NCBI GenBank assembly: GCA_018822105.1
Contig: JAHJLB010000049.1
Coordinates: 34,807-98,806, forward strand
Length of the DNA stretch: 64,000 nucleotides
Reading direction: 5' to 3'
Source of the DNA: Pseudomonadota bacterium
GTDB taxonomy: Bacteria > Desulfobacterota > Desulfovibrionia > Desulfovibrionales > Desulfovibrionaceae
Part shown: piece after piece, positions 20,376 to 60,237 of the stretch
How positions within the stretch are numbered: position 1 is the stretch's first letter
How the letters are laid out: every line of letters starts with the position of its first letter
Notes under the pieces: generated by a model
Databases searched by the model: none
What the model was told of the DNA's origin: nothing
What the model saw: the letters and a program-made list of their open reading frames with translations, nothing else
Position numbers and translations under genes: made by a program

Positions 20376-20410
20376 ATTCTCAAGTTGGGTGATCCGAATT
20401 CTCAAATTGG
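20376..20410. repeat. 22-bp-period direct repeat pair, copy L (putative transposon end)
   Basis: ATTCTCAAGTTGG at 20376 and ATTCTCAAATTGG at 20398, exactly 22 bp apart and preceded by CCCCCGGTCCGC. The same layout occurs at 50715/50737 and, with a different core sequence, at 60048/60070. Each time it lies about 90-130 bp downstream of a tRNA-Ala 3' end. Confidence 0.6.
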
Positions 20411-20473
20411 CTGAGTGCTTACAATGAGTTGCGCGCGGGTTTACTCCGTGGGACAAATTTGTGGGGCGGAACG

Positions 20474-20504
20474 AAAAAAGGGTCCACGAGAATTCTCGTA
20501 AACC
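20474..20504 (-). terminator. Terminator of the decayed tRNA-Ala copy
   Basis: On the minus strand, a 10-bp imperfect stem (GGTTTACGAG / CTCGTGGACC) with an AATT loop and a T-run. It is positionally equivalent to the terminators of the two intact tRNA-Ala genes. Confidence 0.6.
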
Positions 20505-20515
20505 ATTGATTTTCC

Positions 20516-20575
20516 AGGTTGAGCTGGAGGGAATTGAGCCCACGGCCTCTTGAATGCCATTCAAAAAGACAGCCC
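20516..20575 (-). pseudogene. tRNA-Ala(GGC) remnant: 3' half only
   Basis: The bases from the acceptor 3' strand through the T arm and anticodon arm match the intact tRNA-Ala genes at 50866 and 60162, with a few changes (CCA end altered, one T-loop change). Identity stops after the anticodon stem; the D arm, 5' acceptor strand and promoter are missing. The gene is dead and marks the left edge of accessory region A. Confidence 0.8.
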
Positions 20576-20610
20576 AATATGTCCTGAAATTGTTCGCATA
20601 TTTTGTGCCC

Positions 20611-20663
20611 GCACTACAAAAATACGACCTTTTGGGGACATTTGTAGTGCAGATTTGTAGTGC
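20611..20663. repeat. Three copies of TTTGTAGTGC (one inverted, two direct with 13-bp period)
   Basis: GCACTACAAA at 20611 and TTTGTAGTGC at 20641 and 20654. A related pair TGTAGTGCA/TGTCGTGCA with the same 13-bp period lies at 50797/50810 beside the next tRNA-Ala. Protein-binding or element-end repeats are possible. Confidence 0.45.
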
Positions 20664-20758
20664 AAACCACCAGCAAACTGTTTGATAGAAGACCTCTTCC
20701 TCTGCCCATCCAGCGCGGCAGGGAGTGCTTCAAGCCGACCCAGCATTGCGCTGGACTA

Positions 20759-20791
20759 TTCCTTAACCGGCATGACGTGGATGGCCTTGAT
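20759..20791 (-). pseudogene. Fragment of a mop (molybdopterin-binding protein) gene 3' end
   Basis: About 25 identical bases to the 3' end of the intact mop gene at 45520-45729 (encoding IKAIHVMPVKE and stop). Upstream sequence is unrelated. A leftover of rearrangement or of a second copy. Confidence 0.7.
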
Positions 20792-20847
20792 GAGGCCATG
20801 ACCTCGTCGTCCGGCTTGACTCCTCTGTCCGGCCAGACTAACAATTC

Positions 20848-21012
20848 TCTTGTTCGGTGCCCGCAAGGGCGAAGAGGGAATCCCGTGAAATTCGGGAGCG
20901 GACCCGCCGCCGTGAGCCCCGCATAAAGTCGACCCCCGCGTGTGCCACTGGGAGGAATTCCGGGAAGGCCGGGGCCGACGGGGTGAGTCGGAAGACCTGC
21001 CGGATATGACTT
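20848..21012 (+). promoter_or_regulatory. Cobalamin riboswitch
   Basis: The conserved B12 riboswitch core is visible in order: a small P3-like GCCCGCAAGGGC hairpin, AGAGGGAA, GTGAAATTC, GAGCGGACCCGCC, the B12-box type GCCACTG at 20944, and GGAAGACCTGCC closing the aptamer near 20990-21001. It lies upstream of a factor-independent terminator and the cbiK-like gene, so adenosyl- or other cobalamin should shut the downstream genes off. Limits are approximate. Confidence 0.88.
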
Positions 21013-58102: not shown

Positions 58103-58178
58103 ACGGCGCGGCTCCGCCCGGCGTTGGCGCGCCAGGCAGGGCCTTGGGACAAGGATGATGAATCAAACGGAGGGAAAG

Positions 58179-58964
58179 ATGACGAAGCAGAGCGGACAAG
58201 CAGGCGGCCAGAACAACGGCCAGAGCTTTGGCGCGGCAGCAACGGGCACCATCGCGCCCCTGCGCAACGTGGTTCTGTTCTCCGGCCTGGTGGAGCGCGT
58301 CATGGGGCGGCCCTACGGTCTGCCGGGCATGGCCACCTTCCACGGCCGCAGCGGCCTGGGCAAGACCTTTGCGGCCATCTTCGCGGCCAACAAGCACCGC
58401 GCCTACCACATCCAGATCAAGAGCGTGTGGACGCGCAAGCACATGCTGGGCAGCATTCTGGCCGAAATGGGCATCCGCCCGGCGGGCACCATTCCGCAGA
58501 TGATGGACCAGGTGGGCGAGCAGCTCTCGCTCTCCGGCCGCCCGCTGATCGTTGACGAGGCCGACCACCTGCTGGCCAAGGGCATGATCGAGGTGGTGCG
58601 CGACATCTACGAATCCAGCCAGGCCGCCATCATCCTCATCGGCGAGGAAGGCCTGCCGCAGAACCTGGCCCGGTTCGAGCGCGTGCATGGCCGCATGCTC
58701 GACTGGCAGGCCGCCCAGCCCGCCTGCGAGTCCGACGCCCGCGTGCTGGCCCGGCTGTACTGCCCCACGGCCACCGTGGGGGCGGACCTGCTGGCCCGGC
58801 TCCTGGAGGTCAGCGGCGGAAGCGTGCGGCGCATCTGCGTGAACCTGGACCGCGTGCGCGAGTTCGCGGCGGCGGGCGGCCTGAAGGAGATCGGCCTGGC
58901 CGAGTACCAGGGCGAGATCTTCACCGGCAGCCCGGCGGGGGTGCCCCTGCGGAGGTGCGCATGA
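58179..58964 (+). CDS. MuB-type AAA+ target-capture ATPase
   Basis: 261 aa from ATG 58179 (GGAGGG 3-4 bp upstream; ATG 58155 is also in frame). Walker A GRSGLGKTF (about 55-63), Walker B PLIVDEADHLL (about 125), sensor-like IILIGEEGLP. The C-terminal segment GSVRRICVNLDRVREFAA resembles the MuB helical domain. It binds target DNA, stimulates the transposase and gives target immunity. The N-terminal HTH of phage Mu MuB is replaced by a short Gln/Gly-rich stretch, so target choice could differ. Overlaps mom by ATGA. Confidence 0.9.
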   Translation: MTKQSGQAGGQNNGQSFGAAATGTIAPLRNVVLFSGLVERVMGRPYGLPGMATFHGRSGLGKTFAAIFAANKHRAYHIQIKSVWTRKHMLGSILAEMGIRPAGTIPQMMDQVGEQLSLSGRPLIVDEADHLLAKGMIEVVRDIYESSQAAIILIGEEGLPQNLARFERVHGRMLDWQAAQPACESDARVLARLYCPTATVGADLLARLLEVSGGSVRRICVNLDRVREFAAAGGLKEIGLAEYQGEIFTGSPAGVPLRRCA

Positions 58965-59620
58965 GCAGCGCGGGCCGCAAAGGTGTCATCGAGCTGGCCG
59001 CCAAGGGCGGAGCCTACGGCCGCCAGGCCAGGGAGATCATCATCCGCCACCACTACTCCCACCGCATCGTGAACAACTCCTACCTGCACCTGGGCGTGTA
59101 CCTGGCAGGCGAGCTGTGCGGGGTGCTCCAGTTCGGCTACGCGCTGTGCCCGGCGCGGGCGGGCAAGGTGGTGGAGGGCACCGTGCAGGGCCAGTACCTG
59201 GAGCTGAACCGCATGTGGCTGTCCGACGCGGCCCCGCGCAACAGCGAGAGCCGGGCCATATCCCAGGCCATCAAGTACATCCGCCGGGCCATGCCCACAG
59301 TGGCCTGGGTGCAGAGCTTCGCCGACGAGCGTTGCGGCCGCTGGGGCGTGGTCTACCAGGCCGCCAACTTCCTGTACTGCGGCCACCACGTGACGGAGTT
59401 CTATGAGCTGGACGGGGAGACGTACCACAAGATGCTGCTGACGGCGCACCTCAAGGGCGGCCAGCGCGGAGAACACTTGAGGCAGAACCTACACCGGGCC
59501 GTATGCCGAAGCCTGCGGCAGTTCCGGTATGTGTACTTCCTGAAGCGTGATTGGATGGCCCGCCTGCGGCTGCCAGCGCGGCCCTATTTGAAGCCGGAGG
59601 GGATATATGCAAGGAGTTAA
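58961..59620 (+). CDS. mom: Mom-type DNA-modification protein (adenine methylcarbamoylation family)
   Basis: 219 aa, ATG 58961 with GGAGG 5 bp upstream. Family motifs: IIIRHHYSHRIVNNSYLHLGVY, LCGVLQFGYAL, LELNRMWLSDAAPRNSESRAIS, WVQSFADERCGRWGVVYQAANF, FYELDGETYH, RQFRYVYFLKRDW, LRLPARPYLKPE. Mu Mom converts adenines in phage DNA to a modified form that blocks host restriction. In Mu, mom is a late, tightly controlled gene at the right end and needs Com; here it overlaps the MuB gene in the early operon and no com is seen. Its 3' end appears remodelled by a 385-bp insertion. Confidence 0.9.
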   Translation: MSSAGRKGVIELAAKGGAYGRQAREIIIRHHYSHRIVNNSYLHLGVYLAGELCGVLQFGYALCPARAGKVVEGTVQGQYLELNRMWLSDAAPRNSESRAISQAIKYIRRAMPTVAWVQSFADERCGRWGVVYQAANFLYCGHHVTEFYELDGETYHKMLLTAHLKGGQRGEHLRQNLHRAVCRSLRQFRYVYFLKRDWMARLRLPARPYLKPEGIYARS

Positions 59621-59988
59621 GGTCAGTAATATGGATTCAGGACATTGTTAATAGCTTCTGCCACTTCTTCTTGGTTGTGTTTGGATGTCGACTCAAACCT
59701 CGCGATGAGCATTTTGACAACTCCATCAACTGATCCGAAGTCTTGAGGAATTGAACGGCCAATAGTCAACGTTCCCCGTGGCCCTCCCCTTGGGTGGATT
59801 GTGACCGTTTCGCCCATGATCTCAAATGAAACGTCGTCACCATGGTCAAGTATGTTTTGCACAGACAGTCCCCACCCTTCTCGCAGAAAAAAGTAGTACT
59901 CCGGCATAGGTTTCCTCCGAGCTTCAACTTTGGATAGCCTGAGCGTAGATATTTGTAAACACATGGGGGGGCAGCTAGACGGAGGGGA
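59596..59988. repeat. Segment bounded by 8-bp direct repeats at the 3' end of mom
   Basis: GGAGGGGA occurs at 59596-59603 and 59981-59988. Sequence right of the second copy (TTCGCAC...GCGCGTAGCAAAG) matches what directly follows the mom remnant near 50660-50680. So 59604-59988 looks like an insertion that split an ancestral mom 3' end and brought in a 94-aa gene. Confidence 0.55.
59623..59907 (-). CDS. 94-aa hypothetical protein in an inserted segment
   Basis: ATG 59907 with GGAGG 6 bp upstream; the stop is 2 bp from the convergent mom stop. Small soluble protein: an alternating strand-like first half (YYFFLREGWGLSVQN, VSFEIMGETVTIHPRGG) and a helical second half (VDGVVKMLIARFESTSKHNQEEVAEAINNVL). 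No family recognised. Its base composition is AT-richer than mom. Enclosed by the GGAGGGGA repeats. Confidence 0.6.
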   Translation of the reverse strand: MPEYYFFLREGWGLSVQNILDHGDDVSFEIMGETVTIHPRGGPRGTLTIGRSIPQDFGSVDGVVKMLIARFESTSKHNQEEVAEAINNVLNPYY

Positions 59989-60047
59989 GTTCGCACGCGC
60001 GCGTAGCAAAGTCCACGCCTGGAGATGAGAGCCCCCGGTGACGCCGA

Positions 60048-60086
60048 GCAAAACTAAGCGTCGCCGGGGGCAAAACTAAGCGTCGC
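60048..60086. repeat. 22-bp-period direct repeat pair, copy B (putative transposon end)
   Basis: GCAAAACTAAGCGTCGC at 60048-60064 and again, identical, at 60070-60086: exactly 22 bp apart, preceded by CCCCCGGTGACGC. It lies 76 bp downstream of the tRNA-Ala copy B 3' end (60162) and beyond its terminator. Same layout as copies L and A, but a different core. Confidence 0.7.
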
Positions 60087-60118
60087 GCTACAGTGGTGGC
60101 ACAAAATCCAAAGGAAAA

Positions 60119-60151
60119 GAAAAAGGGTCTACGGATTAAGTCCGTAAACCC
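60119..60151 (-). terminator. Terminator of tRNA-Ala copy B
   Basis: Minus-strand stem GGGTTTACGGA/TCCGTAGACCC with a CTTAA loop, then a T-run. It differs from copy A's stem at paired positions while keeping base pairing. Confidence 0.85.
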
Positions 60152-60161
60152 TTGATCTTTC

Positions 60162-60237
60162 TGGTGGAGCTGGAGGGAATTGAACCCACGGCCTCTTGAA
60201 TGCCATTCAAGCGCTCTCCCAACTGAGCTACAGCCCC
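60162..60237 (-). tRNA. tRNA-Ala (anticodon GGC), copy B
   Basis: 76 nt with encoded CCA, gene body identical by eye to copy A; anticodon GGC. It has its own promoter at 60255-60284 and terminator. Probably the resident chromosomal copy, since ordinary core genes follow on its right. Confidence 0.95.

What the first reader, a model, noticed from the sequence alone, without database searches (positions are those of the whole stretch)
20376..60237. Mu-like element ends recur beside three tRNA-Ala(GGC) copies: possible tRNA-directed Mu-type transposition
Seen: three loci each carry CCCCCGG-type sequence, then two direct repeats with an exact 22-bp period (20376/20398, 50715/50737, 60048/60070), then a tRNA terminator, then tRNA-Ala(GGC) or its remnant. 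At two of them a mom-type gene end precedes the repeats. The 60-kb locus also has intact MuA and MuB genes. Known: MuA binds about 22-bp sites in element ends, and Mu inserts nearly at random; Tn7-like relatives (TnsABCD, CAST) insert downstream of fixed genes including tRNAs. Inference: this MuA/MuB/Mom lineage inserts preferentially downstream of tRNA-Ala, an uncommon habit for a Mu-type system. The core repeats differ between copies A/L and B, implying different elements at the same site.
Basis: partly seen in the sequence, partly recalled or inferred. Interest (0 to 1): 0.85.

Follow-up and report, generated by a model that had tools for sequence, protein, structure and literature searches.

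The report
Mu-type phages landing beside tRNA genes
In this bacterium and its relatives, pieces of phage-Mu-type jumping DNA sit again and again about 50 to 210 bases past the ends of many different tRNA genes, so these elements likely steer their insertions to tRNA genes, a habit not expected of a phage known for landing almost anywhere.

Summary
The window holds exactly three 22-bp-period repeat pairs, all beside tRNA-Ala(GGC) or its 3' fragment. The 60-kb copy is the right end of a complete 6,487-bp element (53606-60092: repressor, MuA, MuB, chimeric Mom) with inverted end sites and a perfect 5-bp duplication, GTGGT; it is an internal-deletion derivative of a Mu-type phage. Three end types were searched in related genomes and viral contigs: 26 of 39 right ends lie within about 215 bp of a tRNA 3' end or tRNA 3' fragment, at about nine tRNA species, not only Ala. 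The closest relative (a phage, MuA 93%) has a matching 5-bp duplication across two assemblies and sits 88 bp from a tRNA-Glu fragment. Among distant MuA relatives, 5 of 22 assessable loci have left ends past tRNAs. The extra tRNA-Ala copies come most likely from tyrosine-integrase islands, not from Mu. A concentration at tRNA 3' flanks is well supported; that it arises at insertion, and how, is inferred: no TniQ/TnsD-like selector was found, and Mu in E. coli enters tRNA leaders and tails more than mature tRNA. Exceptions exist (CRISPR arrays, cas3, other sites). New variant of a known kind.

The parts
53601..53605 (.). left copy of the 5-bp target duplication GTGGT
53606..60092 (+). complete 6,487-bp Mu-type element (TGT...ACA ends), internal-deletion derivative of a phage
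53606..53627 (+). left end, site L1 (TGTGCAGCGACACTTAG...)
   Evidence: same motif in G002, G011, G012, G013
53783..53827 (-). two inner left-end sites (inverted copies of the right-end repeat)
   Evidence: read from sequence
54288..54959 (-). cI-like repressor with S24 peptidase domain
   Evidence: E 4.6e-20, 1.7e-46; start chosen by reading
55219..55686 (+). phage transcriptional regulator
   Evidence: phrog_2345, 1.1e-31
55683..55940 (+). small helix-turn-helix-like protein, ner-like by position
   Evidence: weak
55937..58102 (+). MuA-type DDE transposase, 721 aa; D281, D341, E377
58179..58964 (+). MuB-type AAA+ target activator (start chosen by reading)
58955..59620 (+). Mom ORF; its first ~22-25 residues match the phage gene that follows MuB in G002 (switch at 59019-59030)
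59623..59907 (-). 94-aa ORF without family match; relative beside a mom remnant in G003
60049..60092 (+). right end: two 22-bp-spaced sites and terminal CTACA
60093..60097 (.). right copy of the 5-bp duplication GTGGT
60162..60237 (-). tRNA-Ala(GGC), 69 bp from the right end; copy beside the opp-type genes, as in G001, G013, G014
50556..50676 (+). 3' fragment of a mom gene joined to a truncated molybdopterin-oxidoreductase gene
50715..50762 (+). type-1 phage right end (22-bp repeats, terminal TTACA)
50866..50941 (-). tRNA-Ala(GGC), 103 bp from the type-1 end
51014..51153 (+). C-terminal remnant of a tyrosine integrase
   Evidence: integrase assignment from a homologous fragment of L077
20376..20423 (+). 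type-1 phage right end, followed by about 20 bp of a type-3 end
20516..20566 (-). 3' half of tRNA-Ala, presumed far attachment site of an island
20626..20670 (.). TTTGTAGTGCA repeats, presumed integrase arm sites
   Evidence: assignment inferred

Best explanation
The 6,487-bp MuA-MuB-Mom element at 53606-60092, bounded by a 5-bp duplication, and three end types of related Mu-type phages lie again and again 51-211 bp past the 3' ends of tRNA genes, and they likely came there by transposition that prefers this stretch of DNA. In the proposed mechanism (inferred), the MuB-type AAA+ protein is predicted to capture the untranslated DNA just beyond a tRNA's terminator, and MuA joins the ends there; in this genus the right end mostly faces the tRNA, in the distant relatives examined the left end does. 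Tyrosine-integrase islands that use the same tRNA would then stack on top, copying the tRNA and pushing older phage ends aside, which would give the three-copy pattern seen in the window. Shown: element, ends, duplication, deletion origin, position beside tRNAs. Inferred: that the preference arises at insertion, and that MuB or a host factor causes it.
For: Element bounds and duplication; switch to mom inside the phage gene after MuB. Right ends next to a tRNA or its 3' fragment: type 1, 12 of 14 (15 genus genomes); type 2, 5 of 6 (same genomes); type 3, 7 of 13 (288 family genomes, hits in two genera; one of the 7 is a stub of about 16 nt read by eye); viral contigs, 2 of 6, a third stopping in the sites that adjoin tRNA-Ala elsewhere. 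Distances at 26 junctions: 51-211 bp, median 89.5. Closest relative (MuA 93%; terminase, portal, head protease): GCAGC on both sides across two assemblies identical in three blocks totalling 5.5 kb, right end 88 bp from a tRNA-Glu(TTC) 3' half. Left-end search: 4 of 5 type-2 elements at tRNA flanks with the left end distal, one of them by homology only. Distant MuA relatives (50 loci): T-arm+CCA motif 5 times in 140 kb upstream of MuA, 2 times in 574 kb elsewhere; all five at -2.2 to -2.7 kb on one strand. Collapsed to one event per tRNA species: 9 of 20, p 3e-8 at an assumed 4% background, 6e-5 at 10%.
Against: 13 of 39 right ends are not directly at a tRNA: two at CRISPR arrays (L187, L193), one in cas3 (L208), the rest in other places. 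G022 (MuA 41%) has no tRNA in 19.9 kb. Most of the 26 cases are tRNA-Ala and not independent; the type-1 and type-2 patterns were seeded from tRNA-adjacent copies. The G011 relic lacks a matching duplication (TTAAG against GAATG); no type-1 duplication was found. G002's own assembly holds neither the right end nor the flank of its phage as one piece, so that case rests on L209. Two type-3 elements have the left end on the tRNA side (G002, tRNA-Met at 216 bp; L205, tRNA-Ala by homology to L069). The 60 bp past the ends average 55% GC against 66% for the window, a mild difference. ARAGORN found tRNAs in only 4 of the 34 relatives' loci given to it. No targeting protein was identified.
Confidence: 0.62

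Rival explanations
1. Safe-harbour survival: these phages insert nearly at random, but insertions just past tRNA terminators do no harm and are kept, while others are lost.
For: In the 26 measured junctions the tRNA is met at its 3' end, never at its promoter side; the one near-exception is L196, whose inner side lies about 100 bp from the 5' end of another tRNA. Mu in E. coli avoids mature tRNA but enters leader and tail (PMC7350765, passages).
Against: Protein-gene 3' flanks are far more numerous and should be equally safe, yet about 9 of 20 collapsed loci are tRNAs. Copies with clean duplications (element C, the two G002 phages) are also at tRNAs.
Confidence: 0.22
2. Hitch-hiking: the phage ends became part of tyrosine-integrase islands near the attachment site and were carried to tRNAs by the integrase, not by Mu transposition.
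For: Integrase C-termini, arm-like TGTAGTGCA repeats and tRNA 3' halves are found at many of the same loci.
Against: About nine tRNA species would each need their own end-carrying island. Ends sit at different junctions. Element C and two G002 phages have 5-bp duplications. Several ends lie on the chromosomal side of the tRNA 3' half.
Confidence: 0.12
3. A dedicated target selector: a phage protein of the TnsD/TniQ kind, or RNA guidance, recognises tRNA genes.
For: Tn7-like CyCAST uses TnsD to insert 30-33 nt downstream of tRNA-Leu (PMC10293859, passages). MuA's best solved relative by sequence is ShTnsB.
Against: No TniQ match among the ORFs of element C that were scanned. Distances are loose and many tRNA species are used, unlike TnsD homing.
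Confidence: 0.08
4. The 22-bp repeats are ordinary tRNA-flanking sequence, unrelated to Mu.
For: Many copies lie beside tRNA-Ala.
Against: Inverted partners form a left end with a 5-bp duplication; the same repeats end phage contigs; several tRNA-Ala flanks lack them.
Confidence: 0.01

Closest known systems
Phage Mu and Mu-type transposable phages (best named matches in the phage collection: Pseudoalteromonas phage HS6, 35.7%; Rhodobacter RC1 / Rhodovulum RS1, 33.3%)
   Same: DDE transposase with Mu C-terminal domain, AAA+ MuB, repressor, Mom or methylase at the right end, 22-bp-spaced right-end sites, 5-bp duplication
   Different: copies concentrated past tRNA 3' ends; no virion genes recognised in element C
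Tn7-like transposons and CASTs that home to tRNAs (CyCAST)
   Same: related transposase and AAA+ regulator; insertion downstream of tRNA genes
   Different: no TnsA or TniQ/TnsD found in element C; many tRNA species; loose distance (51-211 bp against 30-33 nt)
tRNA-targeting retrotransposons (Ty3; Dictyostelium TRE3, 40-150 bp downstream; PMC5911963, passages)
   Same: same genomic habit and, for TRE3, a similar distance window
   Different: eukaryotic retroelements that target RNA polymerase III-transcribed genes; works alike at most, no relationship
TnGBS / ISLre2 promoter-targeting transposons (PMC3942029, passages)
   Same: bacterial DDE elements with an oriented insertion preference at a transcription feature
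   Different: upstream of sigma-A promoters; Mutator-type transposase

Membership tests
Mu-type transposable phages | DDE transposase with rve and Mu C-terminal domains | tested here: met
   D281, D341, E377
Mu-type transposable phages | MuB-type AAA+ target protein next to MuA | tested here: met
   phrog_296 at 7e-62; weak match to solved MuB, E 0.0055
Mu-type transposable phages | 5-bp target duplication | tested here: met
   element C GTGGT; G002 phages GCAGC (two assemblies) and GATAG; not met in the G011 relic
Mu-type transposable phages | virion structural genes | tested here: not met
   none among the scanned ORFs of the 6.5-kb element C, present in its 93% relative: C is a derivative, not a phage
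Mu-type transposable phages | near-random insertion | tested here: inconclusive
   standing copies are not random (26 of 39 right ends at tRNAs), but insertion itself was not observed
Tn7-like transposons | TniQ/TnsD target selector | tested here: not met
   no match among scanned ORFs of element C
Tn7-like transposons | TnsA endonuclease | tested here: not met
   no match among scanned ORFs of element C
Tyrosine-integrase genomic islands at tRNA | tRNA 3'-half duplication at the far end, and integrase | tested here: inconclusive
   3' half at 20.5 kb and an integrase remnant at 51.0-51.15 kb; no intact integrase among the ORFs scanned, which were only part of the island

The most novel reading that the evidence does not exclude
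A whole branch of MuA/MuB transposable phages, from the window's deltaproteobacterial family to at least one beta-proteobacterium (Cupriavidus gilardii), targets the 3' flanks of tRNA genes at insertion: a bacterial, DNA-transposon counterpart of the tRNA-targeting retrotransposons, reached without any TnsD/TniQ-type selector, through MuB or a host factor bound at the tRNA transcription unit.
Probability: 0.42. Interest if true: 0.85.

Novelty: new variant of a known kind. Interest (0 to 1): 0.72.

Why it matters
How AAA+ regulators of the MuB/TnsC/IstB kind choose targets is an open question. A Mu-type system with a natural tRNA preference and no obvious selector protein would make it testable with few parts, and would add to the reasons why tRNA loci become island hotspots: both integrases and transposable phages would converge on them. 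The 6.5-kb element with open MuA and MuB frames and both ends is a compact natural mini-Mu for such tests.

Tried and rejected
Rejected: that the repeats are plain tRNA flank (see rivals); that the MuB near tRNA-Ser in G012 contig 121 is another tRNA insertion (more than 2 kb of phage-like genes, read by eye, lie between MuB and the tRNA); that the TauE gene left of the G002 phage is the window's TauE (no match). Led nowhere: left ends and duplications for type-1 elements (chance hits only); a first T-arm scan had a faulty pattern and printed nothing, replaced; a search of G002 for the flank of L209 found five matches, all to the tRNA-Glu-like part of the query, not the phage end. Two of the 26 distances (G000 C18, G004 C3) are anchored about 4 bases off, and at nested sites the tRNA-proximal end was measured (at G013 both). 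The labels Pro-TGG, Arg-CCG and the CGC-anticodon tRNA were read by me from 3' halves, not called by ARAGORN; Glu-TTC was read and then supported by a 98% match over 57 bp to a called tRNA-Glu in G002.
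Full report
Observation. ARAGORN finds two tRNA-Ala(GGC) genes on the minus strand, 50866-50941 and 60162-60237; a 3'-half copy lies at about 20516-20566. Downstream of each lies a pair of repeats with a period of exactly 22 bp. A scan of the whole window at 12/16 identity finds three such pairs, one in each flank; 0 of 2000 mononucleotide shuffles give a pair in all three flanks. 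The ATTCTCAAATTG 12-mer alone, at 2 mismatches, is only moderately unusual (4 of 100 shuffles reach its count).

The element at 60 kb. MuA, MuB and Mom are confirmed by Pfam and PHROGs. MuA (55937-58102, 721 aa) has D281, D341 and E377, and its best solved relative by sequence is the ShCAST transposase TnsB (1.1e-10); MuB weakly matches solved MuB (0.0055) and ShTnsC (0.018). Inverted copies of the right-end sites at 53.6-53.8 kb mark the left end. The element runs from 53606 (TGT) to 60092 (ACA) and is flanked by GTGGT on both sides. Up to about 59030 it matches a phage in G002 (HGW-Deltaproteobacteria-8) at 94% DNA identity, then switches to mom with a 12-bp overlap, which gives a chimeric Mom ORF. 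It is therefore read as an internal-deletion derivative of a Mu-type phage that kept both ends, MuA, MuB and the repressor.

Three end types. Type 1 (ATTCTCAAATTG; copies A and B in the window), type 2 (AAAACTAAGCGTCG; the 60-kb element) and type 3 (GTGCCGAATTGCGCG) share one layout: a gene (mom or a methylase; in some relics an integrase or, read by eye, Rhs), a hairpin, two sites 22 bp apart, a terminal ACA or TTTACT. Type 3 ends a 38-kb Mom-bearing prophage in G002 with the duplication GATAG. Type 1 ends a 36.5-kb viral contig with terminase and portal genes. MuA of the type-3 phage is only 29-36% identical to that of element C.

Where the ends lie. Pattern searches that do not ask for a tRNA gave 14 type-1, 6 type-2 and 13 type-3 right ends in genomes and 6 in viral contigs. 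Beside an intact tRNA or a tRNA 3' fragment are 12, 5, 7 and 2 of these, 26 of 39 in all. Caveats: the type-1 and type-2 patterns came from copies already beside tRNAs, most cases are tRNA-Ala, one of the 26 (L192) is a stub of about 16 nt, and the 288 family genomes yielded hits in only two genera. A later, longer type-2 pattern in the same 288 genomes gave 5 hits, all in this genus and all already counted. The tRNAs are Ala(GGC), Ser(GCT), Ser(CGA), Pro(GGG), Met, Glu(TTC) (3' half, supported) and, read by me from 3' halves, Pro(TGG), Arg(CCG) and one with anticodon CGC. In 26 measured junctions the distance from the end to the tRNA 3' end is 51-211 bp, median 89.5. These 26 are not the same set as the 26 of 39: at nested sites the tRNA-proximal end was measured (both ends at one G013 site), and the nested type-3 ends of L186 and L197 were left out. 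Collapsed to one event per tRNA species it is 9 of 20 (L204 put with Ala, L188 with L113, the L192 stub left out); with an assumed tRNA-flank share of 4% of usable sites this has p 3e-8, with 10% 6e-5. The shares are my assumptions. Ends are nested in several places: newer right ends cut into older ones within a few dozen bases; in the nests beside tRNAs all that I could read face the tRNA.

Not at tRNAs. Right ends L100, L107, L113 (the same locus as L188), L189, L191, L194 and L206 have no tRNA at that end; L187 and L193 abut CRISPR repeats (read from sequence; Rfam CRISPR matches below gathering score); L208 interrupts a cas3-type gene (Cas3_HD); L205 lies in a stretch that in G007 is 94 bp from tRNA-Ala, but faces away from it; L204 stops inside the integrase-arm sites that elsewhere adjoin tRNA-Ala. 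For L189 (the G002 Mom prophage) the left end, not the right, lies 216 bp from a tRNA-Met.

Closest relatives. G002's phage (MuA 93%) begins at contig 6 position 304768 after GCAGC. Its contig ends in what looks like the tail-fibre region; viral contig L209 is 100% identical to it in three blocks totalling 5.5 kb (two unaligned gaps of 32 and 134 bp) and runs on to a right end, followed by GCAGC and, 88 bp on, a tRNA-Glu 3' half. G002's own assembly does not hold that right end and flank as one piece. A left-end search in 15 genomes found five type-2 elements: C, the G002 phage, a 0.9-kb relic 84 bp (my count) from tRNA-Ser(GCT) in G011 (its duplications do not match), one in G012 whose left flank is homologous (73%) to a tRNA-Ala flank in G007, and one undetermined in G013. 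In three of the four placed cases the right end is seen to be the tRNA-proximal one; in G012 this is inferred. Against: the 41% MuA relative in G022 has no tRNA in 19.9 kb.

Distant relatives. MuA relatives gave 14 genome loci and 37 viral loci. ARAGORN on 34 of these 51 found tRNAs in 4. In 50 loci (all but the G002 one), 24 extend at least 2.7 kb upstream of the match, 22 after removing two duplicates. A T-arm+CCA scan found 5 hits upstream of MuA in 140 kb and 2 in 574 kb elsewhere; the five (L141 tRNA-Ser in Cupriavidus gilardii; L168 Val; L184 Phe; L160 and L162 tRNA 3' halves) all sit 2.2-2.7 kb before MuA with the tRNA 3' end facing triple TTGGCAC-type sites that mark the left end roughly 90-130 bp on. 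L184 was noticed through its tRNA; its site triplet was not in the motif scan. L140, L145, L175 and L176 (with its duplicate L177) have such sites without a tRNA; L183 has too little flank; loci with mixed-strand clusters were not examined. The right ends of these phages were out of reach.

Why three tRNA copies. The tRNA 3' half at 20.5 kb, TGTAGTGCA repeats beside it and beside the second tRNA, and integrase C-termini beside tRNA-Ala in several genomes fit tyrosine-integrase islands that enter tRNA-Ala. 11 of 15 genus genomes have two or more tRNA-Ala(GGC) copies, 9-17 kb apart where both lie on one contig. Mu-type transposition, with its 5-bp duplications, would not copy a tRNA. No intact integrase was found among the island ORFs that I scanned.

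Mechanism. Shown: where the ends are, and that three elements have 5-bp duplications. Inferred: that the preference arises at insertion. In E. coli, Mu avoids mature tRNA but enters leader and tail sequence more (PMC7350765, passages); the Mu-like phage Ab30 has hotspots, some discussed as palindromic repeats, without orientation bias (PMC5977238, passages). I therefore favour MuB capture of accessible DNA past tRNA terminators, possibly helped by a host factor, over a dedicated selector. Since types 2 and 3 have very different MuA proteins, a shared host feature is attractive.

Print. Four library searches (open-access papers only; 20 of 30, 20 of 199, 7 of 7 and 10 of 17 papers shown) listed no paper whose title or abstract start describes tRNA targeting by Mu-type phages; I read passages of seven papers and otherwise saw listings. 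D. piger prophages are often in or next to tRNAs (13 of 18) and three groups carry Mu-like proteins (PMC12724379, passages), but the passages do not treat this as a habit of a transposase. Transposable prophages of Leptospira are described as randomly integrated (PMC8705779, passages). Tn7-like CyCAST homes 30-33 nt downstream of tRNA-Leu through TnsD (PMC10293859, passages).

Noticed in passing
L187, L193 (CRISPR arrays) and L208 (cas3): Right ends of these Mu-type phages also abut CRISPR repeats (2 of 39) and interrupt a cas3-type gene (1 of 39), perhaps selected by CRISPR self-targeting.
   Followed up: partly
window 50260-50680: A molybdopterin-oxidoreductase gene (formate-dehydrogenase type by context) is truncated and joined to a mom 3' fragment; a related stretch, 88.6% identical, lies on own contig C18 near another phage end.
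   Followed up: partly
L072, L076, L077, L088: Rhs-type genes (read by eye) begin right beside type-1 ends near tRNA-Ala.
   Followed up: no
L140 17691-17757 and 17968-18029: Two type-II hammerhead ribozymes downstream of a MuA relative in Cupriavidus basilensis.
   Followed up: no
L168 5183-5278, L184 2398-2493: anti-hemB (Burkholderia RNA 7) matches upstream of MuA in two tRNA-adjacent phages; possibly a phage RNA.
   Followed up: no
window 20614-50600: About 30 kb with metabolic and transport genes (cobalt chelatase, TonB, ABC transporter) between the tRNA 3' half and the second tRNA-Ala, probably one island.
   Followed up: partly
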